From positions 1 through 58,143 of the forward strand of contig DXEN01000009.1 of NCBI GenBank assembly GCA_019114945.1: a stretch of DNA of 58,143 nt. Direction: 5' to 3'. Within the stretch, counting starts at the first letter, position 1. Each line of letters opens with the position of its first letter. Positions 16,281 through 53,349 of the stretch are shown here, piece after piece. The notes beneath the pieces were generated by a model that was given only the letters and a program-made list of their open reading frames with translations, was not told the origin of the DNA and searched no databases. Made by a program: the position numbers and the translations under genes. Source of the stretch: Candidatus Parabacteroides intestinigallinarum (lineage in GTDB: Bacteria > Bacteroidota > Bacteroidia > Bacteroidales > Tannerellaceae).

Positions 16281-16293
16281 AAACAATTGAACG

Positions 16294-25746: not shown

Positions 25747-25778
25747 CTTGCGAGGCGCGCGGATAACTTTTATATTTG
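25747..25778 (+). promoter_or_regulatory. Promoter of the AraC-family gene
   Basis: CTTG at 25747-25750 (one mismatch to TTTG), 20 bases, and TATATTTG at 25771-25778. This places transcription start near 25785 and decides for the ATG at 25812. Confidence 0.65.
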
Positions 25779-25811
25779 TATCCGGGTAATTGTGATAATA
25801 CGGTTTCGCTT

Positions 25812-37459: not shown

Positions 37460-37507
37460 GAATCCTACAAGTCACGTTTTTTTAATAAATAAGGTAAGAT
37501 TGAATCT

Positions 37508-39289: not shown

Positions 39290-39307
39290 GAAGAAAGGAG
39301 AAAGAAT

Positions 39308-39697
39308 ATGCCTAAATACGTTTGCATGGGGGCGACATTGAAATGCACTTTCGGGATGACGCCCTCCACCTTGATGGTCACGGTCCCCCTGCGGCCGATG
39401 ATCCAGAACAAGCCGAAGGCCACCATCATGGATTTCGTCCCGATGGCCAATATCCTGCCTTTCGGCATGTGCCAATCGCCGAGCAACCCCACGGTAGCCT
39501 CGGCGACCGCCGCCGCGATGGGCGTACTGACGCCGATGCCCTGCGTCCCGGCCATCGTGGCTCCTTGGACGCCGGGCGGGAAAGAACTGATTACCAATAT
39601 GCCCGCCTTGCTCGACAATTGCAAGCTGATGTGCATGTGGGGCGGAAACATCTCCATCACGATGCCCGGCCACACGTGCGATTCGCAAGGGAAATGA
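39308..39697 (+). CDS. PAAR-like tip protein (DUF4280), 129 aa
   Basis: DUF4280 proteins are PAAR-like cones that sharpen the spike. MPKYVCMGATLKCTFGMTPS, the repeated small Gly/Pro/Met motifs MANILPFGMCQSPSNPTVAS, AAMGVLTPMPCVPAIVAPW and the closing MCMWGGNISITMPGHT match the family. Cysteines and histidine could bind a metal, as in PAAR. It starts 18 bases after the beta-helix protein and ends block 1; the hairpin array follows. Confidence 0.85.
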   Translation: MPKYVCMGATLKCTFGMTPSTLMVTVPLRPMIQNKPKATIMDFVPMANILPFGMCQSPSNPTVASATAAAMGVLTPMPCVPAIVAPWTPGGKELITNMPALLDNCKLMCMWGGNISITMPGHTCDSQGK

Positions 39698-40247: not shown

Positions 40248-40973
40248 TTAGCCTTCCTCGTTGGCGAGTGAGTCGAGGTTGATTCGTTTGCCGGCGTTTT
40301 CTCCTCGGGCGGCTTGGCGTTCGCTCTCGGCTTGCTCGCTCTCGGCCTTCCCTTTCAGATATTTCTGATAAGCCTCTTCGATTTGCTTTTCCTTCTCGGA
40401 ACGGTAATCGTCGATCATCGATTTATGCTGGTCGTGAAGCTCTTTCAATTGATCGTTCGCCTCGTCCAACTCCTCTTGATTAGCGCCCACCAGCTTGTTG
40501 GCGATCTTCGCGGTATAGGCCGAGTGGGCCGTGCTCATGCGGGCCGAAGTCTCGTCGTAGAGCGTCTTCACGTAATCCATGCCCGCGTCGCGGCGATCCT
40601 TGTTGACCTCCGGCATCGTGCAGAGAATGTATTTAGTTACCTCGTCCGATTCCTCCTCCGATTGGGCGGCGTTCTCATCGAGATTTTTCTGTTCTTGTTG
40701 GTATTCCGGATGCGACTGGGCGATCGCTTTGCTAATCGGGAAAAGGAAAGCGTTGTCTTTGGGGATGAGCGCGAATTGGTCGTCGGCAGGAAGGGAGACA
40801 TCCGCCACGTCCTCCAGATTCACGCTATTCCCATCGATCTTGACATCCACCGACAGCAAGGCGGCCGGCTCGGCCTTGACCGAGAAGTGCATAAACTGGT
40901 AATTCATATAAACCGCGTAAGCGTCCATTTTCTGCTGGGCTTCCTTCAACAAGAGCCTGACTGAATTTCTCAT
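40248..40973 (-). CDS. Ribosome-recycling-factor-like protein, 241 aa
   Basis: Best read as a divergent RRF-fold protein. Residues ~40-85 (VDVKIDGNSVNLEDVADVSL, then ALIPKD..LFPISKAI) follow the RRF strand pattern VEYYG-x-PLNQVA-I-VP...I-PWDKS-ABC-IEKAI. Residues ~113-207 follow the long three-helix bundle, beginning CTMPEVNKDRRDAGMDYVK, like RRF's PPLTEERRKELVK. The RNIRR-type arginines that contact the ribosome are missing, so it is unlikely to be a working RRF. The C-terminus is charged. It is 24 bases after the PEGA gene, in the same operon, between the two T6SS blocks. It may be a structural or effector-related adaptor. Alternatively it is simply an unrelated coiled-coil protein. Confidence 0.45.
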   Translation of the reverse strand: MRNSVRLLLKEAQQKMDAYAVYMNYQFMHFSVKAEPAALLSVDVKIDGNSVNLEDVADVSLPADDQFALIPKDNAFLFPISKAIAQSHPEYQQEQKNLDENAAQSEEESDEVTKYILCTMPEVNKDRRDAGMDYVKTLYDETSARMSTAHSAYTAKIANKLVGANQEELDEANDQLKELHDQHKSMIDDYRSEKEKQIEEAYQKYLKGKAESEQAESERQAARGENAGKRINLDSLANEEG

Positions 40974-40997
40974 AATCCGTTTCTTTTATATGATTGA

Positions 40998-42353
40998 CTA
41001 TTTTAATTTCAAGTTTACATGTAAAATGTCATTCCTCTTTAGATGAATCACCTTCTCTGCCTCCTTTTTCCCTTTCACCATCCGGAGGCGATAGGTCCGG
41101 TCGGCCGGTAGGCGACTCAAGACGCGAGGCGAGAGGCCCACCTCTACGCCGTTCAGGAAAATCCGTGCGTTCACCTCGTCGCACGAGACGTTCAGCGAGC
41201 CATAATCCGTCAGTGGCGAGGCCAGGTTTAGCTCGACAGTCTCGCCCGCCTCTACCCAAAAGTACGCGGTACGCGAGTCCAATCCTTCTTTTTGGGAGCT
41301 GATGGCATAGAAACCGGGCGCTAAGCGACCTTGCCAACTTCCCTTCCCGACCCACTGGCGATTCAGCCAAATCTCCGTCTCGTCATCGAAAGCCCGGATG
41401 GATACCGACGCCGAATCCGCCTCGACAATCTCGAAAGGGTGTTCCGGGGCGACCGATAGGGAATCCGGCGGAGCGGCAGGAGTCTCTTCCGTTGTTCGAG
41501 TAGGCTCGGTCCTTTCCGCGAGCCGGGCGTCTGTCGGTAGGTGGGGACGTAGGGCGACCTTCCTTAAATCGACCACCTTTCGCTCCGCGTTGCCGAGCTC
41601 CAGCGTCCGGTCATAATAAACCCCGTCTTCCCGCTTCACCGTCAAGCGATATTCCCCCGGGCGCAGGCGTCCCGTATCCGCTTGCCCTTTACCTATCGGC
41701 TTATTGTCCAGCAGGATTACCGCGTCCGGGAACGACGTCTGAACCGTCAGGTAAGCGTAGTAAGTTTTCAAGGTAAAATGCTTTTCCAAACGGACGGTAT
41801 CCGACAGCTCGATCGTATCGCTCAAGGGTTGGTAAAAAGGCGATTCCACCCGGCAGGCGTGCATCCCGATTGGCAGATAAAGCGCCAACTCGCCCTGTTG
41901 GATAAGATACATCGTGCTATCGAGATAAAAAATCGCTTGTTGGGGCTCGAACGAGAATACGGCCCATTGCTTCTCCTGTTGGTATTCCTTCTCCACGCTT
42001 TCCGTATAAAGATAAGCGCGGTAACGTTTTTTCCGTTTCACCCCTTTGCCCGGGATTTTCCAGACGAGCTGTCCATACGACGGATGCTTGATTGTCACGG
42101 ATGTGGTCCGGTGCGGCAAGGAGATTGTCACGAGGCCTTCCCCCTCGATCGCCGTTACCGCCGTTTTGCCTACGAAGAATTGGAATCCTTTCTCGTTCGT
42201 GAAAAGATCGAGCAGAGCTTGCCGCTTGTCTGTCTCATAAGTCGCTTTCTGCCAAAACGGATGCTTGTAACGCGTGAAGTCCTCCACGCGCATCTGTTGC
42301 GCCGCCGCGGAGAGGACCAGCAAGCATCCGAGTAATGACAAAAAGTATCTCAT
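40998..42353 (-). CDS. Exported PEGA-type repeat protein, 451 aa
   Basis: A signal peptide (MRYFLSLLGCLLVLSAAAQQ) starts at ATG 42353. That start is chosen because the TAAGTTTG promoter element lies just upstream and inside the longer frame. After an N-terminal module there are three to four PEGA-like units, each with h-h-LDxxxIGxG...LxPGxYxhxhxxxG: AVILLDNKPIGKGQADTGRL, EIWLNRQWVGKGSWQGRLAP and ARIFLNGVEVGLSPRVLSRL. PEGA modules are usually cell-envelope or surface-layer anchors. Its location between the T6SS blocks suggests an outer-membrane or peptidoglycan part of the apparatus, perhaps standing in for one of the subtype-iii envelope proteins. Cysteine at residue 9 is not a lipobox. Confidence 0.75.
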   Translation of the reverse strand: MRYFLSLLGCLLVLSAAAQQMRVEDFTRYKHPFWQKATYETDKRQALLDLFTNEKGFQFFVGKTAVTAIEGEGLVTISLPHRTTSVTIKHPSYGQLVWKIPGKGVKRKKRYRAYLYTESVEKEYQQEKQWAVFSFEPQQAIFYLDSTMYLIQQGELALYLPIGMHACRVESPFYQPLSDTIELSDTVRLEKHFTLKTYYAYLTVQTSFPDAVILLDNKPIGKGQADTGRLRPGEYRLTVKREDGVYYDRTLELGNAERKVVDLRKVALRPHLPTDARLAERTEPTRTTEETPAAPPDSLSVAPEHPFEIVEADSASVSIRAFDDETEIWLNRQWVGKGSWQGRLAPGFYAISSQKEGLDSRTAYFWVEAGETVELNLASPLTDYGSLNVSCDEVNARIFLNGVEVGLSPRVLSRLPADRTYRLRMVKGKKEAEKVIHLKRNDILHVNLKLK

Positions 42354-42386
42354 ATCCTTATGTATATAAAAGCTTTTCGCTTGGTA

Positions 42387-42418
42387 CAAACTTACGATAA
42401 TTCTCTGGAATATGCGAA
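42387..42418 (-). promoter_or_regulatory. Promoter for the PEGA / RRF-like operon
   Basis: On the minus strand, TTCG (plus 42415-42418), 20 bases, TAAGTTTG (plus 42387-42394). It predicts a short leader before ATG 42353. Confidence 0.6.
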
Positions 42419-42446: not shown

Positions 42447-43703
42447 ATGGATAGTGCTGCTATGCGTGTAGATGAAGAGTTGACTCCGACGATTCCCGGG
42501 AGGTGGGGGGAAGAAGTCTTCCCGTTGCTCTCTTGGTTCCGGCTCGATAAGGTGCGGAACGCGAATGTCATGGTAGTCGGTTGTGGCGCGTTGGGCAATG
42601 AGGTGTTGAAGAATCTGGCGCTGTTCGGGGTAGAGCATCTCGTAATTGTGGATTTCGACACGATCGAGCTCTCGAACCTGACCCGTTCCATCCTCTTCAC
42701 GCCGGAGGATGCCGCGGAGGGTCGCCCGAAAGCCATCGTGGCGGCCGAACGGCTTAGGAAGATTAACCCGGCTATCCAAGTCTTGCCCATCGTAGGGGAT
42801 ATCGCGCACGACGTGGGGCTGGGGCTCTTGCGGCGGATGGATGTCGTTGTCGCTTGTGTCGATAATCGCTGGGCCCGTTATTGCTTGAACCGGCTATGTA
42901 TGCGGATGAATCGTCCGTGGGTGGATGGCGGTATCGATGGCTTGGAGGGTACCGCGCGGGTGTTTGTGCCGGGTAAGAATTGCTATGCGTGTGGCTTGGG
43001 ACCTGAGGCGTTGAAGGACCTCTCGTTCCGTCTCTCGTGCGCTTCGGTAATCCGGCGGAATATACGGGAGGGGCGTATGCCTACCACGCCGGTTGTCGCT
43101 TCTATCATCGGGGCGGTGGAGGCGCAGGAAGCCATCAAGTTGCTGCATCCGGAAGAGCTGGCTCGTGGCGAGCTTACTTCCCTTTGTGGGAAAATGTACT
43201 ATTATGAGGGGCAGCACCTCGCTTCTCGAATAGTTGATTTCTCCGCATATGACGACGATTGTCCGGTTCACGAGCGTTGGGAGCCGATTGAGAAAATCGA
43301 ATCCCTCACGACAGGTCTTCGTGTCGACGACGCGTTGGCGCGTTTGTCCGAGCGTTTCGGGGGAGAGCCTGTTGAGCTTTGCCTTCGGGATTTTCGCTTC
43401 GTCGATTACTTGGTCGACCGGGAAGACGATCGGAGATATGTTGTCTCGCGTCCTGATTACGCGGTTGAGCGTTTCGTGGAGGAGAGCCCGGTATTACGTT
43501 ATAAACCATTCCATTCGTTTTATCAGCATGAGTTCGGGTCTATCGACATGCGTTTCCCTTATCCGGAGCTGACTTTGAAAGAGATCGGCGTGACGGGGTG
43601 TGACGTTGTTCCGGTGCGAGTGGGGAAGGCCATCCGTTATGTCGAGCTGGGTGACGAACTTGATTATTCAATTTATCTGTCCACAAATACGCGAGCTTCA
43701 TGA
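42447..43703 (+). CDS. E1-like (ThiF/MoeB-type) ubiquitin-like activating enzyme, 418 aa
   Basis: Should adenylate and thioesterify a ubiquitin-like C-terminus. The ATP-binding loop is VVGCGALGNEVLKNL (43-57). VDFDTIELSNLTRSILF gives the Asp and Arg that contact ATP, EGRPKA gives the Lys (95), and VVACVDNRWAR gives the magnesium Asp (139). A zinc site is complete as CYAC (179/182) plus CPVH (272/275). Cys198 in LSCASV aligns with the catalytic Cys of MoeB/MOCS3-type E1s; GAVEAQEAIKLL follows. A ~140-residue C-terminal extension has no family I know. Its TGA overlaps the ATG of tssG (ATGA at 43700), which ties it to the T6SS operon. MoeB or ThiF in cofactor synthesis is rejected because the partners are an E2 and a Ubl, with no molybdopterin or thiamine genes. 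Confidence 0.88.
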   Translation: MDSAAMRVDEELTPTIPGRWGEEVFPLLSWFRLDKVRNANVMVVGCGALGNEVLKNLALFGVEHLVIVDFDTIELSNLTRSILFTPEDAAEGRPKAIVAAERLRKINPAIQVLPIVGDIAHDVGLGLLRRMDVVVACVDNRWARYCLNRLCMRMNRPWVDGGIDGLEGTARVFVPGKNCYACGLGPEALKDLSFRLSCASVIRRNIREGRMPTTPVVASIIGAVEAQEAIKLLHPEELARGELTSLCGKMYYYEGQHLASRIVDFSAYDDDCPVHERWEPIEKIESLTTGLRVDDALARLSERFGGEPVELCLRDFRFVDYLVDREDDRRYVVSRPDYAVERFVEESPVLRYKPFHSFYQHEFGSIDMRFPYPELTLKEIGVTGCDVVPVRVGKAIRYVELGDELDYSIYLSTNTRAS

Positions 43704-44485
43704 ACGAGACGAATCTATATGACATCGGCGCGGAATTCCTGCTGAATTACCTGTATCCCGATTGGACGGATAAGTGGGTGGCGGAGTGCGCTGGGACGTT
43801 TTACCGGAATTACACCCCGGATATCCTTTCTGTCGATGAGGAGCGGCGAACCGTCAGTCTTGCCCGGGATGGATTCACGCGCTTATTACCACAGGGCTTG
43901 ATCGCTCGGGATAACGCGCTGAAAGGGGGAGATTTTAAGCAAAAGAACGAACGTTTGGAGAAGAAAGCGGCTCAGGTCCGGGACTTGTTTAAGCCTGTCG
44001 ATACCCTCTCTTTTCGTTCCCGTTTGCATGTGGAGAAGCAGTTGGAACAACTTTCGAGCGATAAACTTCCCTTTTTGCTAAAACGTTATTTGGGATATGA
44101 TATGGAACAGGAGAGCGATCCCCTTGTTCGGAAGGTAGCCCCGTTGCTTTTATTTGTCAGTCGTTTGCGGGCGGACTTCGGTTTTATTCGCGATTTGTTG
44201 GCGCGGCTAATCGGCTGTAAGGTAGAGATGCGGACCGGCTCTTATTCCTGGGAGGAGGGCGCGGACTATTCGTGTCCTTCTATCGCGTATTATTTGATAG
44301 TTCCGGATCTTACGGAGGAGGCGTATCGGTCGCTTATGTCGGCGATTGCCCCGTTGAGGGAATTCCTGTTGGAATGGTTTATTCCGTTTGATACCCATTG
44401 CACGATCGAGGTGAAATACCATGAGCAACCCTTCTTGTTAGGGGATCGCCTGACGCTGGATTATAATACGGAGATTCATCAATGA
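43700..44485 (+). CDS. tssG: TssG-like baseplate protein, 261 aa
   Basis: Divergent TssG of the Bacteroidota type. The C-terminus has the family architecture: PLREFLLEWFIPFDTHCTIE, a strand, then LLGDRLTLDYNTEIH, which matches the TssG ending in which LG-x-x-LG-N-T closes the protein. The N-terminal half has charged helices (EKKAAQVRDLFKPVDTLS). Two TssG normally wedge with TssF and TssE. It is coupled to the E1 gene by a 4-base overlap and followed by tssK 22 bases later. The call depends on pattern plus neighbours TssK/E/F. Confidence 0.7.
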   Translation: MNETNLYDIGAEFLLNYLYPDWTDKWVAECAGTFYRNYTPDILSVDEERRTVSLARDGFTRLLPQGLIARDNALKGGDFKQKNERLEKKAAQVRDLFKPVDTLSFRSRLHVEKQLEQLSSDKLPFLLKRYLGYDMEQESDPLVRKVAPLLLFVSRLRADFGFIRDLLARLIGCKVEMRTGSYSWEEGADYSCPSIAYYLIVPDLTEEAYRSLMSAIAPLREFLLEWFIPFDTHCTIEVKYHEQPFLLGDRLTLDYNTEIHQ

Positions 44486-44507
44486 CTAATAGTAAAGAGA
44501 TAACACC

Positions 44508-45650
44508 ATGAATATCAACTCGAGAATAGATTGGAAAGCGGGTATGGCTATCTCCGCGCGGACGTTCGTCCAGATGGATAAAAACCTGGCATGGAGGCAA
44601 CAGGTCGCGAACCGGGCCTCGAATGGGAATCAGTTTGGCCTGATTCCTTTCACGGAGTTTAAGTGCCAGTGGGGGTTTGTCCGCAACAAGTTGGAGATCG
44701 AGCATCTTTCGTGTATGGCTCTTTTGCCGTCCGGAAAGATTTTGCATATCGATGAGAAGGCGTTGGTCTCCATTCCGTTGGTTTATGGCGATGAATATTA
44801 TTTGGCATGTGGTTGTGGCGAGGGCGAGACTTCTTTTGAGATTGAGGATGTCCCCTTTGTTCGTCCCGAGGTGACTTATGGCATTTATCAATTGAAGGAA
44901 TTGGAGGGGAAGGATTTGCTTCCGATTATGAAATTTAAGGTGAACGAGGGAGTTTTCTCTATCGATGAAGGATATATTCCTCCCTGTTTGCATCTTTCGT
45001 CCGATCCTCGTTTCCAGTCCCATATCTTTCGGTTGGCGGAAAGGATCGCCCGATTAGCGGAGCACCCGAACTTAGAATCCGGCGAGGGGAAACGGGCGTT
45101 GCAACACTATGCTTATGTACTGGGAAATTATGATTTGAGAAATCGAACCGCCCATTTTATCGGATTAACGAATGAGATAGCGCAAGCGATAGACTATTAT
45201 ATCGTCGCGCCGAACACCGAGACTCCGGTTGCATGGGAGCCTTATTCGGAGTATGATGTTGTAATATGGCTGAATCGACTGAATGATTATGCTTATAGCG
45301 CGGAGACGATTCTCGACAAAGTGGTGCTGGAGGATCATTCGATCGACTTCGAGGCGCTGAAGGCTCAAATCGTGTCGGAATTGTATGAGCGGTTGCATAT
45401 GGAATTGCATGATCGATTGTATGAGGAGTTGAGAGGGAAGCTTTACGCGGAGATCATGGAGGAGCAAACCTCGCGGCTGACCGATTATGTAAACAATCGG
45501 CTGAAGGCGGAGCTGCATGATTTGTTGTCGGGCGAACTTTCGGAAGAGCTTTTTGGAAAGTTGTACAATGCATTGTATGATAGTCTTTTCAATGCGTTGT
45601 ATGTCCCGGAGGAAAAAGAGGAGGAGGAAGAGTTCGTACCTTTAATATAG
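44508..45650 (+). CDS. tssK: TssK-like baseplate protein, 380 aa
   Basis: Connects the baseplate to the envelope complex. The N-terminus INSRIDWKAGMAISARTFVQ matches the TssK opening W..GM.I....F. EGYIPPCLHLSSDPRF matches the shoulder-domain motif. The family is usually about 440 residues. Here the C-terminal head is replaced by repetitive amphipathic helices (about 295-370) with units such as ELYERLHMELHDRLYEELRG and ELFGKLYNALYDSLFNALY, then an acidic tail. Because the TssK head binds the membrane complex, this change may fit a different envelope partner. It lies between tssG and tssE. Confidence 0.75.
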   Translation: MNINSRIDWKAGMAISARTFVQMDKNLAWRQQVANRASNGNQFGLIPFTEFKCQWGFVRNKLEIEHLSCMALLPSGKILHIDEKALVSIPLVYGDEYYLACGCGEGETSFEIEDVPFVRPEVTYGIYQLKELEGKDLLPIMKFKVNEGVFSIDEGYIPPCLHLSSDPRFQSHIFRLAERIARLAEHPNLESGEGKRALQHYAYVLGNYDLRNRTAHFIGLTNEIAQAIDYYIVAPNTETPVAWEPYSEYDVVIWLNRLNDYAYSAETILDKVVLEDHSIDFEALKAQIVSELYERLHMELHDRLYEELRGKLYAEIMEEQTSRLTDYVNNRLKAELHDLLSGELSEELFGKLYNALYDSLFNALYVPEEKEEEEEFVPLI

Positions 45651-45657
45651 GAATGCC

Positions 45658-46104
45658 ATGAGTATATTGTTGCCATTACAGGTTGTGAACGGACGATTGA
45701 AACGGGCGAGGAATCCCAAAAAGGCGATTGACGCGTTCCTGGAGTTGTTGTTGACGACTCCTTGCCGGAGCTGTGTGCCGGATCCTCAATTTGGCTTTGT
45801 TTTTAATAACCTGAAGTTCGAGGTCTTTAATGAGAAGGAGGGGGTTATCTTCAATTCCCATCCTACCGCCGACGAGCCGGAAAGTTTGTATGACAAGAAA
45901 GTGTCGGGGAATTCAAAGAGTCTCAATACATTCGCGTTGGAGCTTAAAAAGGCGATAGAGCGATACGAGAAACGGCTCTCGGAGGTTTCCGTTACGATGG
46001 CTTATGTAAAGGGGCAGCGGAAAATACTCATTTCTATAGAGGGGATCATCGTGGAAACTGGCGAGGCGTATCGTTATCTTTCCAGCCTCTCTATTTGGAA
46101 TTGA
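45658..46104 (+). CDS. tssE: TssE-like (gp25) baseplate protein, 148 aa
   Basis: Small gp25-type protein that starts sheath polymerisation. It shows LLLTTPCRSCVPDPQFGFVF, a helix NTFALELKKAIERYEKRLSE followed by VSVTMAYVKGQRKILISIEG. This is the gp25 layout of helix, 'RYEPRL-V' turn and two strands; the EPRL motif appears as EKRL. It starts 7 bases after tssK. Confidence 0.75.
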   Translation: MSILLPLQVVNGRLKRARNPKKAIDAFLELLLTTPCRSCVPDPQFGFVFNNLKFEVFNEKEGVIFNSHPTADEPESLYDKKVSGNSKSLNTFALELKKAIERYEKRLSEVSVTMAYVKGQRKILISIEGIIVETGEAYRYLSSLSIWN

Positions 46105-46138
46105 TAGCGTGTTCAATCATTAAAAAGAATCTTATCTT

Positions 46139-47830
46139 ATGAATCAGACAATATTCACGACGCGCCAACGGGCGGAGGAGCTTATAAAAGAAGCGATCTC
46201 TATTTGGCAATATAATGGTGGAGGTGAGCTTTTGGAAGGCATCGAGCAGGATCCGGTTTTCTCTTTGTTCATGACCGCTCTCGCTTATCAGGCGAATGAG
46301 ATAGATAATGAGATTGAGCAATTGAGGGTTGAGGTCTTGGATGAGTTCGCGCGGATGTTGGTTCCTTATGATAAAACGCACGCGCTTCCCGCCACGGTGG
46401 TTGTTGAGGTTCAATTGCATGAGGGCGTCTCCGAATGGAACTTGGATCATCATACGAGTTTCTCGTTGGGGAAGTTTACGTTCCTCCCGTTATTGAGGAC
46501 GCGGGTGCTTAATGGGAGTGTAACATCGGTCGTGCGGCTCGATAATCGGCGTTGGAAGGTCGGCCTGCGGTTCCGGGAGCCCGTGAGGAACTTGTCCGGT
46601 ATGACCTTCATGGTTGATAGCGATCAATTTCAGGATTTGAAACTCTTCGCGAACGGACGTGCGCTTCCGCTGGTGAAGCCTTGGGATTACGCGGATTTGC
46701 CGTTGGATGATTATTTTTCCATCGAGCATATGGTCTACAATCAATCCTTTATTTATTCGGCCACGAACACGTGGTTCGATCTTTTCGCCAAGCAAAACGT
46801 AAGGTTGTTTTACATTGATACGTATGAGACATCATCGGCTCAACAGATGCCGACCGAGACATTGGATTTGATATTCGAGTTTACGGGGATAAGCGACGCG
46901 TTTCATTTTGATAAGGAATGTTTGTCCTTGAATGCTACGATCCTGGCCAACGTGGAGGAGCGTGTGGCTACGCTTTCCTCGTCTTCGCCCATCGTCCGTC
47001 TTTCGGGAGGGGACGACGGGCCGGACCAATCGCGTTTTTTGCATCTGATCGCTCCTCCGGATATCCAGCTCTTTCACGAGGAGTCGCTTGAACTCCGGAA
47101 AGTCGGGGCGGATCGTTTCAGCACGGATCGCCTGATGAAACTGGCCGGTACGCTGGTTTCCCGCTTCACTTCCGATTATTATGCGTTCCAAACGGTAGCT
47201 CCTTTTAATGAGGGCGCGTTTATGGAGCAATTTTACGCGTCCTTGAAGCGGATATCGGAAGGAATCGCCCAGGCTTCCCAAACTACCTCGCCGGGCTTGT
47301 ATCTGATGTTGCGAAAGAAACGTCGTTCTCAAGAGGCGAACTTCAGCCTGGATATCCACTATTTGATGACAAATGGCGACGCGGTTAATTCGGTGTTGGA
47401 CGCTAAGAGCCAGCTGAGCGCCTCGGTGGCTTCGTATATCCGGGAGGTTCGGATAAAAGCGGACCCTATGCCGGGCCATGGCGAGATTCAAGGAGCTGAC
47501 GCGGAGGAGGTCTTGGCCCGTTATTATATGGTGACCAACGACCGTATTGTTACCCCGATGGACATCAAGGTGTTTTGTTACAAGGAGTTGGTGACCCGTT
47601 TCGGGATAACGCCGGATATGATTTCCAGTGTCAAGGTCAAGAATGTGCGATATACCGATTCCGTGCGCCCCGCGTTCGAGACGCGGGTGTATATCATCTT
47701 GAAAGATAGCCCGTATGTCAAGCGCGGTTTCGAGGAGAGAATACCGATGGTGGAATGGGTTTTCCAAAAGATGATAGAAGTGAGGAGCACGAATGTATTC
47801 CCGGTCCATGTCAATATCGAGATAGTGTGA
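46139..47830 (+). CDS. tssF: TssF baseplate protein, 563 aa
   Basis: Main wedge protein of the baseplate. The N-terminus carries the family's helical signature DPVFSLFMTALAYQANEIDN EIEQLRVE-type sequence and DEFARMLVPYD, like 'DP-VERLLEGFAFLAARI...ARLLDDFPE' in other TssF. The middle and end include VQLHEG, SDYYAFQTVAPFNEGAFMEQ and RITPMDIKVFCYKELVTRFG. Length is typical. It is followed 66 bases later by the ubiquitin-like gene, with a TATATTCG element at 47867-47874 between them. Confidence 0.82.
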   Translation: MNQTIFTTRQRAEELIKEAISIWQYNGGGELLEGIEQDPVFSLFMTALAYQANEIDNEIEQLRVEVLDEFARMLVPYDKTHALPATVVVEVQLHEGVSEWNLDHHTSFSLGKFTFLPLLRTRVLNGSVTSVVRLDNRRWKVGLRFREPVRNLSGMTFMVDSDQFQDLKLFANGRALPLVKPWDYADLPLDDYFSIEHMVYNQSFIYSATNTWFDLFAKQNVRLFYIDTYETSSAQQMPTETLDLIFEFTGISDAFHFDKECLSLNATILANVEERVATLSSSSPIVRLSGGDDGPDQSRFLHLIAPPDIQLFHEESLELRKVGADRFSTDRLMKLAGTLVSRFTSDYYAFQTVAPFNEGAFMEQFYASLKRISEGIAQASQTTSPGLYLMLRKKRRSQEANFSLDIHYLMTNGDAVNSVLDAKSQLSASVASYIREVRIKADPMPGHGEIQGADAEEVLARYYMVTNDRIVTPMDIKVFCYKELVTRFGITPDMISSVKVKNVRYTDSVRPAFETRVYIILKDSPYVKRGFEERIPMVEWVFQKMIEVRSTNVFPVHVNIEIV

Positions 47831-47896
47831 CGGGGGCTATCGGGTAAGAAATAGAAGGTTTATTCGTATATTCGCGTACATATAAAAAACATTCGA

Positions 47897-48214
47897 ATGG
47901 AAGATTTCTTTTTGGATATTGTGTATAAAGATAAAAAGGTCCGGTTCCGTATCGTGAATCCCCATGCGCCATTGAGCACGTTGATGAATAATCTGCGTCA
48001 TGCTATCGGGAAAGATGGACGTTTGATCTTTGATTTCCCTTCTATCGATCAAACGGGCGCTCCGCTGGATTACTTTTTCGGGAAGGAGGATCCGGCGATC
48101 AACGAGATAAGGGTGCTTCGGCCCAGGATCGGGAAGTCCGACCAGACGCTGGCGGATTATAACGTGCGGAATGGGGATACGGTTTTCTTGATTCCGGACC
48201 CATTCCCCGGTTAA
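47897..48214 (+). CDS. Ubiquitin-like protein ending in Gly, 105 aa
   Basis: Beta-grasp protein: an opening hairpin (DFFLDIVYKDKKVRFRIVNP), a helix (LSTLMNNLRHAIGKDG), a strand region LIFDFPSIDQTGAPL, and a closing IRVLRPRIGKSDQTLADYNV, RNGDTVFLIPDPFPG. The last part matches the ubiquitin/YukD-type ending 'TLxDYxIxxGDTVxLxx'. The protein stops exactly at a glycine, the residue E1 enzymes adenylate, so no protease is needed to expose it. An E2-like gene starts 15 bases later, and an E1-like gene heads the operon. It could be a T6SS structural part rather than a modifier; the E1/E2/RING company argues for conjugation. Only a single terminal Gly is present, not GG. Confidence 0.8.
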   Translation: MEDFFLDIVYKDKKVRFRIVNPHAPLSTLMNNLRHAIGKDGRLIFDFPSIDQTGAPLDYFFGKEDPAINEIRVLRPRIGKSDQTLADYNVRNGDTVFLIPDPFPG

Positions 48215-48228
48215 TCGTATAGGTATCA

Positions 48229-48831
48229 ATGGGAGGTGATGCGTTGATAATGTATAGGCCCGACTTCGATGTCAACCGGTTATCCGGGAGGGATCGGCGC
48301 TTGTTTTATGAGTGGAGCCAATTGGAGCGTGCTTTTGGGCAAGGCGGAAAGATACGGTTCGAGGTCGCTGAATGTAATTCGCGGGGGCTTCCCATCAAGT
48401 ACCGGGTCGCTTACCACATCCGTTCCATTCAGGGGGTTGAGCGTGTGGAGGCGTTGGACATGCCCGGTGTATCGAACCCGCCCATTTTCGCTTCTTTGTT
48501 CCTGATGACGATTACCCTACCGGACAATTACCCTTGTGTAGACGCTCCGGTGGAGTTCCGTTTCTTGACCTGCGACGAGGCGGGAAAGGCGATTCCGCAT
48601 CCCTGGCATCCCAATATCCGGTATTTTGGCGAGTTCGCCGGACGGGTTTGTTTGAATACGCCGGATACCTATGCCAGCTTGCTTTGGGGCGTACGCCGTG
48701 TCGCACTCTATTTGCGTTACGACTTGTACCATGCCGCCCAGCACCCTCCTTATCCGGAAGATCCTAAAGTGGCGCGCTGGGTTGTCCGGCAAGGCGAACC
48801 GAATGGCTGGGTTTATTTTGATCAAAACTAA
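48229..48831 (+). CDS. E2-like ubiquitin-conjugating enzyme (UBC fold), 200 aa
   Basis: Would take the ubiquitin-like protein from the E1 onto a cysteine. The UBC core is visible: helix RDRRLFYEWSQLERAF, strands to FLMTITLPDNYPCVDAPVEF (the E2 'P-x-YP-x-x-P-x-x-x-F' strand), HPNI (127-130) and GRVCLN with catalytic Cys141. The conserved Trp comes after it (SLLWGV). The HPN-to-Cys loop is four residues longer than in typical E2s. C-terminal helices include EDPKVARWVV. A start at ATG 48229 or at ATG 48250 (MYRPDF) is possible. The gene follows the Ubl by 15 bases and ends the tss operon; a fresh promoter for the next genes is at 48874. Confidence 0.85.
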   Translation: MGGDALIMYRPDFDVNRLSGRDRRLFYEWSQLERAFGQGGKIRFEVAECNSRGLPIKYRVAYHIRSIQGVERVEALDMPGVSNPPIFASLFLMTITLPDNYPCVDAPVEFRFLTCDEAGKAIPHPWHPNIRYFGEFAGRVCLNTPDTYASLLWGVRRVALYLRYDLYHAAQHPPYPEDPKVARWVVRQGEPNGWVYFDQN

Positions 48832-48873
48832 GTTTAAGGCATGGGAAAACGATGCTTTTTAGATTCTTTTCCT

Positions 48874-48881
48874 TATATTTG
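48874..48881 (+). promoter_or_regulatory. -7 element upstream of the envelope genes
   Basis: TATATTTG, 16 bases before ATG 48897; the -33 box is unclear. It lies inside the longer frame from 48852 and excludes that start. Confidence 0.55.
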
Positions 48882-48896
48882 TTCACGTTATTTAGA

Positions 48897-50042
48897 ATGG
48901 ACCGGATGAAGTGGCGGAATATATTGATATATAGTTTCATGTTTATCTGTTTGGGGCATGTTTCATGGGCGCGGACGATAAAACGGATAAGCGTGTCGGG
49001 GAACGAGCCTTACGTGGATCATGTATCGCTTCAGGACGGGAGTGCGGACATGGACTTGCTGGTCAAGTTCGTTTTCGACGAACCGGGCAATTGCTTGACT
49101 GTTAGCTTGATTTCTTATCGGCGTCTATTCGTTTTCCAAAGTGACGTGCGTTATTCGCAGGTCGTTCGGTGTTTTAAGTTGCGCCCTTCTAAATTGCCTT
49201 ACGTTGTCGATTCGGATGAGCGGGCGAGGTATAAGCTCACCAAGTCTTTGCGGAAATCCATCCGTCCGAGGCGAAAGCATGTGTTTAAACGTTGGATCGA
49301 GTATGAGGGGCTTCAACCCCAGCCGACCGATTATAAGATGGTGAACGAATACATCGAGCAACGGTTTGACGTCCTCTATAAGGATGCGCCCGTGACGGTT
49401 ACCCTGCGGGATCTTTTACTGATGGACGAGCAAGTCACGCCGACCAAGAAGAAATATGATCTCTTTTTCCAGACCGATTTGAACCGAAAATACGAGATCG
49501 CTATCCTTCGGGATCCTTGCTTTGGGAAGGAAGAGGCTATCCAAGCGGCGATGACGTGCGTGGAGAATATTAAAAACAGCTATTCCGCGTTCGACCGGAG
49601 TTTTGGCGAAGCATCCGTTCCGTATTCGGCGGATAGCCGGGAAGTATTTACCCGGATGAAAGCGCTTCTCGTGGAGCAATATCCGCTTTGGGAAGAAACG
49701 AATCCCTGCCCGGAGATTCAAGCGAACATTGATTTGTATAATAGCTATGTGGATTCTATCCGGGGAGTTATGCCCGCGTTCGAGGAGCGGCGGGTAGAGA
49801 TCCTGCAGCTTGATACCGATTATATCTTGGCGTTGGCGAAGCGGATGGACGCACATGTGAGCCGATGGCTTTTGTCGTCGGATCCCGCGGAGCGGAACGA
49901 CTTGGTCGCCTCGTGCGAGGAGATTATCCGTCAGGCCCGTTCGCATATCGGGCAGGCCTCGGCATCTCATGAGCGCCAGCGGGCGGCAATCCGTGTGTTC
50001 AATGCGGCGGAGGAGTATTTTCATAAGACTTGTACGGAATGA
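48897..50042 (+). CDS. Exported protein of the T6SS locus, 381 aa
   Basis: Family not recognised. A signal peptide (MKWRNILIYSFMFICLGHVS, start 48897 or 48906) leads to a periplasmic N-terminal domain. That domain contains DLLVKFVFDEPGNCLTVSLI SYRRLF-type strands and basic segments (LTKSLRKSIRPRRKHVFKRW). It is followed by a helical C-terminal half (about 210-381) rich in charged heptads. No membrane span follows the signal. The next gene starts inside its stop codon (ATGA at 50039), so these genes are coupled. By place and topology it may be one of the subtype-iii envelope proteins (TssN-TssR); I cannot say which. Confidence 0.6.
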   Translation: MDRMKWRNILIYSFMFICLGHVSWARTIKRISVSGNEPYVDHVSLQDGSADMDLLVKFVFDEPGNCLTVSLISYRRLFVFQSDVRYSQVVRCFKLRPSKLPYVVDSDERARYKLTKSLRKSIRPRRKHVFKRWIEYEGLQPQPTDYKMVNEYIEQRFDVLYKDAPVTVTLRDLLLMDEQVTPTKKKYDLFFQTDLNRKYEIAILRDPCFGKEEAIQAAMTCVENIKNSYSAFDRSFGEASVPYSADSREVFTRMKALLVEQYPLWEETNPCPEIQANIDLYNSYVDSIRGVMPAFEERRVEILQLDTDYILALAKRMDAHVSRWLLSSDPAERNDLVASCEEIIRQARSHIGQASASHERQRAAIRVFNAAEEYFHKTCTE

Positions 50043-50902
50043 GGACGATATGTATAGACATAGTTGGAATAATCTTCCGTCAACGATTCTGGTTGGTCGT
50101 ATGCGTATGGATGGTGTGGTTTTGCCCGGGGGCGGGGGCGCAAGAGGAGCAGGTCGACTTTATCGATAACGTACGTTTGCTGGAAATAGAGAATCGTATG
50201 CTTTATTTTTACGATCAGCTCCAAGAGATATCCTCGCTGATACCGGAGTATGCCCCGGAGGATTTGGATAAGGCGGAGGTGCGGGTGAGCGTGGTCGACG
50301 CGAAATGGGATGTCTATTACCAGTCTATGCGGGATGCGATCGCGAACGATGATTCCTTGTTGCAAATAGTCGCTAATTATCAGGTGGCGAAACAATCCGC
50401 CTTGGATTCGATCGCTTATCGGAAGCATTTTTTTGAGGCGCGGGCGAGTTTTGATGAGGCGGAGGCTTTTTTGTTGGCGCAAGATAGTGTCTACGCACGT
50501 CTTTATGACACGGCGTTAGGGTACTCGTTGGTGAAATCGTTGGGCGCTGAGCTTGAGCGCGTGAAAGGGAAGGAGCAATTGTTGGCGGAGGAGGCGCGAG
50601 GGTATTATGAGCGTGCGAAGGGCATCGCCCAGGAGTTCGACGAGCTATCGCCCAGATTCTCGCGCATGGAAGAGGTGTATATCGGGTTGAGAAATACCTC
50701 GGAGAATATACAGGCCTTGGAGTATAAACCTTGGATCCAGCGGGTGAAGGATTATTTGTACAGCTTTGCCGCGGTCGCGCTGATACTCATGTTCCTCAAT
50801 ATGTTGCAGGCGAAATGGAAAGCGTTCAAGCAAGCGCGTGAGAACGCCCGAAAACTCGCTCAGATGATGAATCGCGATGAGAATGAGTATCCCACGATCT
50901 GA
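50039..50902 (+). CDS. Periplasmic coiled-coil protein with C-terminal membrane span, 287 aa
   Basis: Family not recognised. The start at ATG 50039 overlaps the previous stop (ATGA). A signal segment or N-terminal anchor (FWLVVCVWMVWFCPGAGAQ) is followed by a mostly helical periplasmic part with coiled-coil character (LEIENRMLYFYDQLQEISSL; LGAELERVKGKEQLLAEEAR). A single membrane span lies near the C-terminus (YLYSFAAVALILMFLNMLQA), then a basic cytoplasmic tail (KWKAFKQARENARKLAQMM). This topology suits an envelope-spanning strut of the secretion apparatus. A lipoprotein-like gene follows after 29 bases. Confidence 0.6.
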   Translation: MRTICIDIVGIIFRQRFWLVVCVWMVWFCPGAGAQEEQVDFIDNVRLLEIENRMLYFYDQLQEISSLIPEYAPEDLDKAEVRVSVVDAKWDVYYQSMRDAIANDDSLLQIVANYQVAKQSALDSIAYRKHFFEARASFDEAEAFLLAQDSVYARLYDTALGYSLVKSLGAELERVKGKEQLLAEEARGYYERAKGIAQEFDELSPRFSRMEEVYIGLRNTSENIQALEYKPWIQRVKDYLYSFAAVALILMFLNMLQAKWKAFKQARENARKLAQMMNRDENEYPTI

Positions 50903-50931
50903 AATGTCTAACTTGTTAATAATTCGTTAAG

Positions 50932-53349
50932 ATGAATAGCGTTAAGATAATATTCCTTTTGTTGGGTGTTCTCCTCCTTTCGGGATGCGAGGGTTTCGCT
51001 CCGGAGGATAAGTCGCACCGGGAGGATCATAATGTCAATATCCTGGATGTGGAGTTCGAGCCGGATTACAAATATTTTTACGCGAATGCCCAATTGAACG
51101 ATAGCATCGTGTCGGCTATAATAAGAGGGGATTCCACGATTCGTTTTGAGGCGCGGGAGTTTGCCGGGAACCATTTGGCGACGTCGAATACCCAGCCGAG
51201 ATTGATTGAGATAAAAAACATCAAGCTACAAGAAATCCGGAATTTGGATTTGAATATATTGGTGTTGGTGGATTTGACACTCGATCCCGAGCAAATCGCT
51301 GCCCAAAGGCTGGCGGTGAAAAACATGAAGGCTTTGTTCTCGTTGAGCAATATGCATGTCGCGTTCATGAAAAACCGGACGGTCTCGGAGACGATGAACG
51401 CCACGGATTATGTCTTGGATAATTATTTTAAGCCCGATCCGGGTGAGAAGTATCTTTATCGCTCTATCTTATGCAAGCTGGATGAGTTGGTGGGACGTAA
51501 GTCACGTTATTTCCCGGAGGTCAAGCAGGATACGATTACCCGGTATCTGACGCCCCGGCAGGAGGTGTTGGTCGTGCTCTCGGACGGGAAAGTGTACGAG
51601 CATGACATGCCGATCGATCCGGAGCATTACGCGTTGCAGCGAGCGATTACCCAATATGCTGATTCGATACGTCGGTTGCCTCTGTTTTATGTTAGTTTAG
51701 GGTCGGACGAGCGGGAGGCCGGGCTTTCGGAGGAACCGGCGGAAGGGTTGGACAATGAGGCGGAGAATTTGATGCGGGTATTATGCGCAAAAATGAAGGG
51801 GCAATTCTTGCGAATGCTCGACCCCTACTTCATCCTGAATGACCTTGTTACGCAATTTCATAAGCAATACGCCGATTTCCGTTTCCTGTTCGTCAATCCT
51901 GATTTGAAGATCTACCGGGGACTGGAGCGGATTCTCCAGATTGATTGTTTCCAGTCCGATAGCCTGATAGCCACCGATGTCTTCCCGTATAGCGTGGGGA
52001 GTATTTACAGCCCTGTTATCGTTCATGGGGCTACTACGTTCCAGATTATTTTGCGGGGAGGGATTTTTGGGGTATTGATAATCTTATTGCTTTACCTCGT
52101 TTTCCAATTGGTGATCCCGGCGATTCGTTATTGGCTATTCAAGCGGAAGTATGTCACCCGTTATACGCGGAAAAATATGACTTATAATGGTATTTTGGTT
52201 GAGCAATCTTGTTATTTCTGCAAGGCTCCTTTCGAGGAAGGCGACGAGATTGTCGTGAAATGCCAGCATGTGCTCCATAAATCGTGTTGGGACGAGAATG
52301 AATACAAATGCCCCGAATATGGGAGGCATTGTAAGCAAGGGAGCCATTATTACAACCAGAAGAATCTTTTTGACCCGCATAACGCCTCGTTCTATCTTTC
52401 GTGGATCTTGGCGGGCGCGCTCGCGGGGTTGGTCGCGTGGATATGTTTTACGGCGAATGCCCATGGCGATGGCAATCATGTGCTTGTAAATGTCATCCAC
52501 TTGATATTTGGTGTGGACGCGAATTCGGATAGAGCCGCTGATCTGATGCGGATTTATGGCAATCATCTCTATTTCCTTCCTTTCTATGGATTGAATATCG
52601 GCTTCTTCCTGACCCTTTCGTTGAGCTTGCTGACCAGTCGTGGGCGTTGGTGGGGGAAGCGCTCGCTGGTGGTCGTCGTTAAGTCGCTCGTTGGGGGACT
52701 CCTGAGTTATTTGTCTTTCTTTTTGGGGTGTGTCGTGTCGATCGCTTTGAATCTGAAGGACAATACGGCCTTGATTGATTGGCTCCCCTGGATGTTGAGT
52801 GGTTTCATTATCGCCTTCGTGGTCGCTTATGGCACGGATATCAAGTTGCGAAAGGCCTTGGTGGGCGCCACCATTTCCATCATCTTTGGCTTGGGGTCGA
52901 TGTACTCATGGTCGTTCGCGTTCAATTCGCAGTTCGATACACGCGAGTTCCTGCTTTTGAGCTATATGATTTATTGTATAGGATTCGCGGTGAGTGTCGC
53001 GGTCACCTCGCCGAAGTCCGAGCGATATTTCTTGCGGGTGGAAGGGCCTATCAAGACGATGGATATCGCGATTTATAAATGGATGAGCGCGGCGGCCAGG
53101 AGGAAACGAGTCTTGATTGGCAAGTCCGTGAATTGCGAATTGCAGATGTCTTGGGATTTGACCAGTCCTATCGCTCCCGAGCAGGCGGAGATTCGGATGG
53201 TTAACGGCAATCTTTACCTTATCGCCCTGGAAGAGGGTGTATATCACGATAAGAAGCCTTTGCGCGTCCATCTGCGGAAGCGGTTGTATCACGGCTTTAA
53301 GTTCTCGATCGGTAAGACGCAGTTCACCTATATCGAGAAAGATCTATGA
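50932..53349 (+). CDS. Membrane protein: vWA-like, RING-H2-like zinc module and FHA-like tail, 805 aa
   Basis: N-terminal lipobox LLLSGC (Cys19). Residues ~105-300 read as a vWA-like fold (LNILVLVDLTLDPEQIAAQR; EVLVVLSDGK) with an imperfect MIDAS. One span (about 371-397) leads to the cytosol. There residues 427-467 give C-x2-C, 13 residues, C-x-H-x2-H-x2-C, 7 residues, C-x6-C: Cys427, 430, 444, His446, 449, Cys452, 460, 467. This is RING-H2 order, with the last pair wider than the usual C-x2-C. Six further spans (about 486-692) precede an FHA-like C-terminus (RVLIGKSVNCELQMSWDLTS, APEQAEIRM, GFKFSIGKTQFTYIE). It could be a membrane E3 for the E1/E2/Ubl set and an envelope part of the T6SS. 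The zinc ring might instead be purely structural. Confidence 0.75.
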   Translation: MNSVKIIFLLLGVLLLSGCEGFAPEDKSHREDHNVNILDVEFEPDYKYFYANAQLNDSIVSAIIRGDSTIRFEAREFAGNHLATSNTQPRLIEIKNIKLQEIRNLDLNILVLVDLTLDPEQIAAQRLAVKNMKALFSLSNMHVAFMKNRTVSETMNATDYVLDNYFKPDPGEKYLYRSILCKLDELVGRKSRYFPEVKQDTITRYLTPRQEVLVVLSDGKVYEHDMPIDPEHYALQRAITQYADSIRRLPLFYVSLGSDEREAGLSEEPAEGLDNEAENLMRVLCAKMKGQFLRMLDPYFILNDLVTQFHKQYADFRFLFVNPDLKIYRGLERILQIDCFQSDSLIATDVFPYSVGSIYSPVIVHGATTFQIILRGGIFGVLIILLLYLVFQLVIPAIRYWLFKRKYVTRYTRKNMTYNGILVEQSCYFCKAPFEEGDEIVVKCQHVLHKSCWDENEYKCPEYGRHCKQGSHYYNQKNLFDPHNASFYLSWILAGALAGLVAWICFTANAHGDGNHVLVNVIHLIFGVDANSDRAADLMRIYGNHLYFLPFYGLNIGFFLTLSLSLLTSRGRWWGKRSLVVVVKSLVGGLLSYLSFFLGCVVSIALNLKDNTALIDWLPWMLSGFIIAFVVAYGTDIKLRKALVGATISIIFGLGSMYSWSFAFNSQFDTREFLLLSYMIYCIGFAVSVAVTSPKSERYFLRVEGPIKTMDIAIYKWMSAAARRKRVLIGKSVNCELQMSWDLTSPIAPEQAEIRMVNGNLYLIALEEGVYHDKKPLRVHLRKRLYHGFKFSIGKTQFTYIEKDL

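What the first reader, a model, noticed from the sequence alone, without database searches (positions are those of the whole stretch)
42447..53349. A complete ubiquitin-like E1-E2-E3 cascade inside a type VI secretion locus
Seen: an E1-like enzyme with ATP-site residues, a complete CxxC/CxxH zinc site and a MoeB-type catalytic Cys; a ubiquitin-like protein ending in Gly; an E2-like protein with HPN and the catalytic Cys; and a membrane protein with RING-H2 ligand order. All sit on one strand, interleaved with tssG, tssK, tssE and tssF. Established: bacterial ubiquitin-like operons exist, and some (Bil type) attach a Ubl to phage tail parts. A T6SS is itself a phage-tail-like machine. Inference: this system conjugates a Ubl to T6SS tail or baseplate parts, or to cargo, to control assembly, quality or loading. 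I cannot check whether this gene set has been described.
Basis: partly seen in the sequence, partly recalled or inferred. Interest (0 to 1): 0.95.

Follow-up and report, generated by a model that had tools for sequence, protein, structure and literature searches.

The report
Ubiquitin-type tagging pathway inside secretion weapon
Many gut and rumen Bacteroidales carry a contractile protein-injection machine whose core gene set includes a ubiquitin-like tag and the enzymes to attach it, apparently in place of one known membrane anchor, which suggests that a ubiquitin-type tag helps build or control this bacterial weapon.

Summary
Window 42447-53349 encodes an E1, a ubiquitin-like protein (Ubl) ending in Gly, an HPN/Cys E2 and a lipobox-RING-multi-TM-FHA membrane protein, interleaved with T6SS baseplate genes. 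Of the 80 best-matching named E1 loci, 72 hold all eight core genes; the other eight run off their contigs. Key residues are invariant: E1 Cys/zinc site 81/81, E2 75/75, Ubl C-terminal Gly 75/75, eight RING ligands 74/74. Cascade and baseplate proteins diverged together (r 0.80-0.92). TssN, the known Bacteroidota T6SS anchor, passes its cut-off in 1 of 16 genomes with this E2, there in a separate T6SS. Related T6SS loci add a membrane JAMM protease; the window's group lacks it. Divergent copies of the module lie without tss genes nearby. Most likely this T6SS subtype needs Ubl conjugation at the membrane to assemble or anchor. Activity and substrate are untested. Such cascades are known from bacteria and archaea; T6SS linkage appeared in no paper I could read, but a key 2011 paper was not held.

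The parts
42447..43703 (+). E1-like Ubl-activating enzyme (ThiF core, zinc site CxxC...CxxH, conserved Cys, C-terminal alpha/beta domain of about 130 aa)
   Evidence: PF00899 2.9e-52; best PDB profile matches are eukaryotic E1s, UBA7 1.3e-38 and UBA1 about 3e-32, ahead of MccB 2.1e-28 and MoeB 1.2e-27; AlphaFold2 pLDDT 89.8
43700..44485 (+). TssG-like baseplate protein (name by position and by homology to genes in other T6SS loci; no Pfam hit)
   Evidence: 4-bp overlap with E1; present in 80 of 80 named loci, within 200 bp of E1 in 77; iterated profile finds it in E2-less T6SS loci
44508..45650 (+). TssK baseplate protein
   Evidence: TIGR03353 4.5e-12, PF05936 1.4e-4, both below the curated cut-offs
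45658..46104 (+). TssE (gp25-like) baseplate protein
   Evidence: PF04965 1.5e-8, over its cut-off; TIGR03357 2.1e-5
46139..47830 (+). TssF baseplate protein (no Pfam hit itself; homologous to TssF-position genes of other T6SS loci)
   Evidence: the L034 homologue reaches PF05947 only at 0.05
47897..48214 (+). Free-standing ubiquitin-like protein, 105 aa, last residue Gly
   Evidence: median 79% identity to the window in 74 loci
48229..48831 (+). E2-like (UBC) protein, HPN127-129 and Cys141
48852..50042 (+). Conserved protein with an N-terminal signal-like segment (by reading), unknown; candidate envelope component
   Evidence: in 66 of 80 named loci; no Pfam match of note
50030..50902 (+). 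Conserved protein with N-terminal signal-like segment and one hydrophobic segment near the C-terminus (243-261); candidate envelope component
   Evidence: in 65 of 80 named loci, two of them weak hits; hydropathy
50932..53349 (+). Membrane E3 candidate: lipobox Cys19, N-terminal part with a weak vWA signal, hydrophobic segment, RING-H2, further hydrophobic segments, C-terminal FHA
27792..30239 (+). TssH/ClpV-type AAA+ ATPase of the same T6SS
   Evidence: PF07724 and PF10431
30289..34093 (+). Sheath and tube genes by position (TssB, TssC, Hcp-like genes); those scanned had no naming model hit
34112..39697 (+). VgrG spike (34112-37459), unknown conserved protein (37508-39289), PAAR-like protein (39308-39697)
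   Evidence: TIGR01646 1.5e-24, NF041248 4.7e-11, both below curated cut-offs
40248..42389 (-). Two conserved accessory genes (40248-40973 and 40998-42389); same genes in most window-type relatives, on either strand

Best explanation
This is a subtype of the Bacteroidota type VI secretion system with its own ubiquitin-like conjugation pathway as a core part. Inferred mechanism: the E1 adenylates the C-terminal Gly of the 105-aa Ubl and passes it by thioester to its own Cys and then to E2 Cys141. The membrane RING protein recruits E2~Ubl at the inner-membrane docking site and directs the Ubl onto a baseplate or tail component (TssK/E/F/G or the spike) or onto the envelope proteins beside it. 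The tag licenses docking or assembly of the baseplate at the membrane, a job that TssN is proposed to do in the known Bacteroidota system. In related T6SS loci a membrane JAMM protease could remove the tag; in the window's group that protease is absent from the locus, so tagging is probably one-way. Shown here: the gene set, its conservation, the intact catalytic residues, co-divergence with tss genes, and no TssN match in this genome. Inferred: activity, substrate, location and effect.
For: 72 of the 80 named loci kept have all of E1, TssG, TssK, TssE, TssF, Ubl, E2 and RING protein; the other 8 end at contig edges. Invariant catalytic residues. The Ubl ends exactly at the Gly in all 74 named loci that show it, plus the window. 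E1 closest to eukaryotic E1s among PDB chains. Distance correlations of the cascade with TssG/K/E/F are 0.80-0.92, 0 of 199 permutations as high; TssK-TssF 0.96 and TssG-TssE 0.90 for comparison. TssN over cut-off in 1 of 16 E2-carrying genomes, in a stretch unrelated to the E2 locus; one more (G200) has a sub-threshold match of 19.3 bits. Of 13 E2-less order genomes with a TssF match, 10 were tested and 6 have TssN. JAMM motif HxHPGx5SxxD in 11 of 11 protease-type T6SS loci whose E2-RING interval is covered. Ten T6SS loci of E2-less genomes carry none of the four cascade genes.
Against: No biochemical evidence. The 80 loci are the best matches to one E1 and share ancestry, so they are not independent trials. 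The E1-E2-RING module also occurs without tss genes nearby in three genomes (G580, G674, G133), so its chemistry is not T6SS-specific. No Lys stands out as an acceptor. TssN is also missing from some E2-less genomes with a TssF (G040, G344, G350, G363, G411, G090), so its absence is not explained by the cascade alone. No homology of the RING protein to TssN (hhalign probability 9%, TM region only) or TssR (4%) was found. Only TssN and TssR were searched for; TssO, TssP and TssQ were not. The vWA signal is weak (1 of 36 members).
Confidence: 0.6

Rival explanations
1. The cascade tags effectors or tube/spike cargo (Hcp, VgrG, PAAR) in the producing cell for loading or quality control, not the baseplate.
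For: VgrG, PAAR and Hcp-like genes lie in the same locus in most relatives; Hcp has several Lys invariant over 34 sequences. That Bil attaches a Ubl to a phage tail-tip protein is recalled, not read here.
Against: Hcp is highly conserved overall (82% median, 33 loci), so invariant Lys mean little. E1 lies next to TssG and not to the Hcp/VgrG genes, and the RING sits on a protein with several hydrophobic segments.
Confidence: 0.2
2. It is an anti-phage or stress-defence module that happens to be kept beside T6SS genes.
For: Bil operons are defence systems (recalled; named so in the titles cited by PMC11354881); E1 matches PADLOC E1-E2 models over the ThiF core (1.5e-15); two free-standing relatives sit beside nSTAND1 and ion-channel genes.
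Against: Ubl, E2 and RING protein have no PADLOC match at 0.01; in the 80 named loci the cascade genes adjoin or interleave with tssG/K/E/F; co-divergence approaches that among tss genes; single-sequence tblastn found no hit in phage records (E2) or plasmid records (Ubl).
Confidence: 0.08
3. The E1/Ubl pair is a sulfur-transfer (MoeB/ThiF-MoaD/ThiS type) pathway, and E2/RING are scaffolds.
For: ThiF/MoeB models match the E1 core, all far below their curated cut-offs.
Against: E2 HPN and Cys invariant in 75 of 75, RING ligands in 74 of 74; E1 core closer to eukaryotic E1s than to MoeB; no sulfurtransferase match among the ten proteins of the block scanned.
Confidence: 0.05
4. The Ubl and E2 act non-covalently as structural adaptors of the membrane complex, catalysis being a relic.
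For: TssN is proposed to use a Ub-like domain as a hub that docks the baseplate (PMC10781749, passages).
Against: All catalytic residues and the free C-terminal Gly are invariant over large divergence; the Ubl profile shows no match to TssN (hhalign probability 0.1%).
Confidence: 0.07

Closest known systems
T6SSiii of Bacteroidota (B. fragilis GA3; PMC10781749, passages and section 11 read)
   Same: Same phylum; baseplate genes tssE/F/G/K, ClpV, VgrG. TssR is described there as a lipoprotein with a vWA-like domain; the RING protein here has a lipobox and a weak vWA signal.
   Different: That paper finds tssN systematically between tssK and tssG and says its membrane complex, or part of it, is in all T6SSiii it detected. 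Here TssG and TssK are adjacent, TssN and TssR give no match, and a Ubl cascade is part of the block.
Bil (BilABCD) Ubl systems (PMC11354881, passages read; primary papers not held)
   Same: E1, E2, Ubl in one operon; JAMM protease in the related T6SS loci.
   Different: Single Ubl domain, HPN-type E2 not CEHH, single-adenylation-domain E1, added RING membrane protein, T6SS setting, protease absent from the window's group of loci.
Archaeal CsUb operon of Caldiarchaeum subterraneum (PMC11354881 section 18 read; PMC5654768 start of abstract in a listing)
   Same: Ubl, E1, E2, RING-H2 (C3H2C3) and a deubiquitinase in one operon.
   Different: The RING there is called small-RING; here it is on a membrane protein with FHA; no secretion system there (recalled).
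Prok-RING_1 E1/E2/Ubl/JAB neighbourhoods (Burroughs, Iyer and Aravind 2011; recalled, paper not held)
   Same: Pfam Prok-RING_1 is among the best matches to the RING; that family was predicted to work with E1, E2, Ubl and JAB (recalled). The core module is probably of that kind.
   Different: Whether T6SS linkage was noted there could not be checked.
MoeB/ThiF with MoaD/ThiS
   Same: Adenylating E1 core and Ubl with terminal Gly.
   Different: E2 and RING present; E1 has an extra C-terminal domain.

Membership tests
Ubiquitin-like conjugation cascade (E1-E2-E3) | E1 with ATP-binding core, zinc site and conserved Cys | tested here: met
   81 of 81 for Cys/zinc-site and most ATP-site residues, R109 in 79 of 81; PF00899 2.9e-52; model pLDDT 89.8
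Ubiquitin-like conjugation cascade (E1-E2-E3) | Beta-grasp Ubl with exposed C-terminal Gly | tested here: met
   75 of 75 end in Gly; strand/helix order of the AlphaFold2 model; the 60 PDB rows shown are ubiquitin, its fusions and variants, or FAT10. A fold search could not be run.
Ubiquitin-like conjugation cascade (E1-E2-E3) | E2 UBC fold with HPN and catalytic Cys | tested here: met
   75 of 75 for the residues; PDB E2 profile matches 6.2e-8 and 5.3e-7; none at 0.001 with a narrower profile. The fold itself was not predicted.
Ubiquitin-like conjugation cascade (E1-E2-E3) | RING with eight zinc ligands | tested here: met
   C3H2C3, 74 of 74, last pair spaced C-x6-C in the window; PDB matches only weak, RNF126 0.046
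Ubiquitin-like conjugation cascade (E1-E2-E3) | Thioester transfer and isopeptide product | not testable with these tools
   needs biochemistry
Bil (BilABCD) | BilA with two Ubl domains | tested here: not met
   one 105-aa domain
Bil (BilABCD) | E2 with CEHH motif | tested here: not met
   no Glu/His at the corresponding offsets (+6, +8, +13) after Cys141 in the window; HPN instead
Bil (BilABCD) | E1 with inactive plus active adenylation domain | tested here: not met
   one ThiF stretch and a 418-aa model
Bil (BilABCD) | JAB/JAMM protease in the operon | tested here: not met
   0 of 65 window-type named loci with the E2-RING interval covered, and not in the window; present in 11 of 11 protease-type T6SS loci
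T6SSiii | TssN between tssK and tssG | tested here: not met
   TssG-TssK adjacent; PF17555 no match in G000; the same search finds it in G197 and 8 other genomes
T6SSiii | TssR | tested here: not met
   PF17643 no match in G000; found in 1 of 14 genomes, G197
T6SSiii | TssO, TssP, TssQ | not tested
   no search made with these families; no such Pfam match to the 20 window proteins scanned
T6SS in the wide sense | Sheath, tube, spike, ClpV, baseplate | tested here: met
   TssK, TssE, VgrG, PAAR-like and ClpV by models, several below curated cut-offs; TssB, TssC, Hcp, TssF, TssG by position and homology only

The most novel reading that the evidence does not exclude
A bacterial nanomachine whose assembly depends on ubiquitin-type conjugation: the membrane RING protein is itself the anchor of this T6SS, and a covalently attached Ubl takes the docking role that TssN and its built-in Ub-like domain are proposed to play in T6SSiii, so that the tag is a permanent structural part (window group, no protease in the locus) or a reversible switch (loci with the JAMM protease).
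Probability: 0.3. Interest if true: 0.97.

Novelty: new variant of a known kind. Interest (0 to 1): 0.86.

Why it matters
Bacterial ubiquitin-like pathways are best known from phage defence and have lacked a clear housekeeping substrate (recalled). Here one is part of the core gene block of a contractile weapon in many Bacteroidales, among them rumen, cecum and other gut lineages by their record titles. If active, it would be a genetically tractable case of protein tagging controlling assembly of a large bacterial machine, would show what stands in for TssN, and would define a T6SS subtype that surveys resting on TssN or TssP could miss or mis-score. It also brings RING, JAMM and FHA domains together in one bacterial membrane system.

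Tried and rejected
Homology of the RING protein or the two envelope proteins to TssN or TssR: tested by hhalign, not found (TssN-RING protein probability 9%, E 0.0036, TM segments only; TssR 4%). The TssR set held only two sequences, so that test is weak. Ubl to TssN: none.

Sequence match of the E1 C-terminal domain to PDB chains: none at E<=5. The model shows an alpha/beta domain at about residues 281-401; a fold comparison could not be run because the machine stayed busy, so an E1 ubiquitin-fold domain is only a guess.

Acceptor lysines from conservation: nothing distinctive.

A deubiquitinase elsewhere in the genome: PF14464 finds one JAB protein in G000 (contig C9, beside genes that look like PorP/Gld by reading) and none in the five same-genus relatives. 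This search is a weak control: it also missed the JAMM proteins of G163 and G287 that my own profile finds. So a protease elsewhere in the window's genome cannot be excluded. The second E1 in G000 looks like TcdA by reading (recalled).

In-vivo expression: PMC11204068 (passages) reports TssD of Bacteroides mediterraneensis An793 at high level in chicken caecum; that strain has this T6SS (L043) and a separate TssN-type one, so the protein cannot be assigned.

Papers not held: PMC2732565, PMC5938088, 10.1038/s41586-024-07730-4, 10.1038/s41586-024-07616-5, 10.1039/c1mb05061c. No paper on a T6SS-linked Ubl cascade was among the rows listed (15 of 490 shown; 12 of 1,632 shown); PMC12469244, which holds the word ubiquitin once, was not opened. 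What I saw: PMC10781749 passages and section 11; PMC4714493 passages; PMC1779556 passages; PMC11354881 passages and section 18; PMC11204068 passages.


Full report
WHAT IS THERE. The window (58 kb, one contig of a 2.98-Mb assembly) holds a T6SS locus from about 27792 to 53349. Models identify ClpV/TssH, VgrG and a PAAR-like protein, TssK and TssE, several of them below curated cut-offs. TssB, TssC, Hcp, TssF and TssG are named by position and by homology to other T6SS loci. Inside the baseplate block lie, on one strand, E1 (42447-43703), TssG, TssK, TssE, TssF, Ubl (47897-48214), E2 (48229-48831), two envelope-type proteins, and a RING membrane protein (50932-53349). E1 and TssG overlap by 4 bases; Ubl and E2 are 14 bases apart.

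ARE THE FOUR PROTEINS WHAT THEY SEEM. E1 is certain (PF00899 2.9e-52). Its family profile matches eukaryotic E1s best among PDB chains: UBA7 1.3e-38, UBA1 about 3e-32, SUMO E1 about 1e-29, then MccB 2.1e-28 and MoeB 1.2e-27. E2: UQ_con weakly in 8 of 9 members, best 1.5e-5; a diverse 9-row profile finds UBE2K at 6.2e-8 with HPN and Cys aligned and a 16-row one finds E2s at 5.3e-7; a 39-row profile of closer relatives found nothing at 0.001. Ubl: weak singly (of 39 members 15 match Rad60-SLD, 3 YukD, 2 ubiquitin at 0.01). A diverse profile matches 331 PDB sequences at E<=1, and the 60 shown are ubiquitin, its fusions and variants, or FAT10; the last position falls on the end of FAT10 and, by extension of the aligned stretch, on ubiquitin Gly76. 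The best rows are sums over repeated ubiquitins and should be discounted; a narrower profile was weaker and also drew unrelated chains near E 0.5. AlphaFold2 gives strands 5-10, 13-18, helix 26-34, strands 56-65, 70-73, 95-102 at pLDDT 88.8, the beta-grasp order (recalled). The RING protein has a lipobox Cys19 (69 of 74), a hydrophobic segment at 377-395, the RING at 427-467, further hydrophobic segments and a C-terminal FHA domain. A vWA match was found in only 1 of 36 members at E<=0.01; more distant relatives keep a DxSxS motif.

CONSERVATION. Their titles name Parabacteroides, Bacteroides, Mediterranea, Caecibacteroides, Alistipes, Millionella, Prevotella, Xylanibacter, Paludibacteraceae and unnamed Bacteroidales. 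All 80 have the TssG gene; E1 and TssG lie within 200 bp in 77; 72 have all eight core genes and the eight others stop at a contig end; Ubl and E2 lie within 200 bp in 74 of 74. Invariant: E1 C208, C211, C227, C301, H304 and the ATP-site residues tested, except R109 (79 of 81), in 81 of 81; E2 H127, P128, N129, C141 in 75 of 75; Ubl Gly105 as last residue in 75 of 75; eight RING ligands in 74 of 74 (counts include the window). Median identity to the window is 79% for Ubl, 57% E2, 55% E1, 49% TssE, 47% TssK, 43% TssF, 42% TssG, 38% RING protein; Hcp (82%, 33 loci) is as conserved as Ubl. Pairwise distances of the four cascade proteins correlate with those of TssG/K/E/F at 0.80-0.92; the highest of 199 permutations in any test was 0.29.

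DISTRIBUTION. Among 197 relatives 9 have the E2 and 13 a TssF match; the six same-genus genomes with a strong TssF are the six with the E2. Among 392 genomes of the order 6 have the E2 and 18 a TssF match; 5 of the 6 are among the 18, G133 is not. Among 374 of the phylum 3 have the E2, two of them outside the order. TssN over cut-off: 1 of 16 E2-carrying genomes (8 plus 5 named, 3); the exception, B. mediterraneensis, has it in a stretch that shares no 60-mer tested with its E2 locus; G200 has a sub-threshold match. Of the 13 E2-less order genomes with TssF, 10 were tested: 6 have TssN, 4 not. Ten T6SS loci of E2-less genomes (L034, L035, L037, L039, L141-L145, L149) carry none of the four cascade genes; some are cut by contig ends.

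TWO FORMS AND A FREE FORM. In a second set of T6SS loci the order is Ubl-E2-further genes-JAMM protease-RING protein-E1-TssG-TssK-TssE-TssF. The protease has HxHPGx5SxxD in 11 of 11 such loci whose E2-RING interval is covered (7 named, 4 unnamed), and in three free-standing ones. It is absent in 65 of 65 window-type named loci with that interval covered. In the E1 tree the window type is one side of a fully supported branch (100/100; 73 rows, seven of them cut before the RING gene), so one loss or gain of the protease suffices; the root is unknown. The protease-type T6SS loci are not a group of their own: the free-standing copies fall among them, with a long-branch warning. Three genomes (G580, G674, G133) have E1-Ubl-E2-protease-RING protein with no match to my tss profiles in the 40 kb read of each; G133 also had no TssF match genome-wide, the other two were not searched for TssF. 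In G580 and G674 most RING ligands are lost; in G580 the neighbours are an nSTAND1 protein and an ion channel. In two of the three the Ubl runs on past the Gly, as expected where a protease must trim it; in the 74 named T6SS-linked loci it ends at the Gly.

MECHANISM. The invariant chemistry argues for a working cascade; gene order and co-divergence tie it to the baseplate; the RING on a membrane protein places the last step at the inner membrane. PMC10781749 proposes TssN as a membrane hub whose Ub-like domain docks the baseplate, and finds tssN systematically between tssK and tssG. Here that place is empty and a separate Ubl with its own attachment enzymes is present. I therefore favour tagging of a baseplate or envelope part as a licensing or anchoring step. 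This last step is inference.

COMPARISON. It works like a bacterial E1-E2-RING(-JAMM) pathway. It is not a Bil system (three features not met, a fourth only in the protease-type loci), nor T6SSiii as published (TssN and TssR not found). The module itself is probably of the kind predicted by Burroughs, Iyer and Aravind in 2011 (recalled; paper not held), which keeps the rating at 'new variant'. I found no paper on a T6SS-linked cascade in the rows listed, which cover open-licence papers only.

Noticed in passing
L034 1-20000 (G040); similar TssK-TssG layout in L145 (G350) and L149 (G363): A further Bacteroidales T6SS form with no TssN match in the genome and TssG next to TssK; in L034 two Ser/Thr-kinase genes, an FHA domain and an M23 peptidase lie beside the baseplate genes. 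The neighbours in L145 and L149 were not scanned.
   Followed up: partly
L163 9836-19635 and L165 9725-19580: E1-Ubl-E2-JAMM protease-RING protein operon without tss matches nearby; in L163 with nSTAND1 and ion-channel neighbours; RING ligands largely lost while a DxSxS (vWA) motif is kept.
   Followed up: partly
L033 1548-14426: E1-Ubl-E2-JAMM-RING protein set followed by an SrfB-family gene (1e-213), no match to my tss profiles in 40 kb read.
   Followed up: partly
window 14517-25545: The T6SS lies downstream of nusG-rplK-rplA-rplJ-rplL-rpoB-rpoC, with an AraC-type regulator at 25776-26699 between.
   Followed up: no
window 44508-45650, C-terminal third: TssK has a repetitive amphipathic-looking C-terminal segment (sequence reading).
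   Followed up: no
window 37508-39289 and 40248-42389: Three unknown genes kept with this T6SS in most window-type relatives; the last two change strand and order between loci.
   Followed up: no
G000 contig C9, L175 144-1004: A separate JAB-domain protein with an intact-looking JAMM motif at a contig edge beside PorP/Gld-like genes (neighbours named by reading).
   Followed up: partly
L043 (Bacteroides mediterraneensis An793): Carries both this T6SS and a TssN/TssR-type T6SS; TssD of this strain is reported as highly expressed in chicken caecum.
   Followed up: partly
L109 1-21209: A second Ubl match lies downstream of the PAAR gene in this locus.
   Followed up: no
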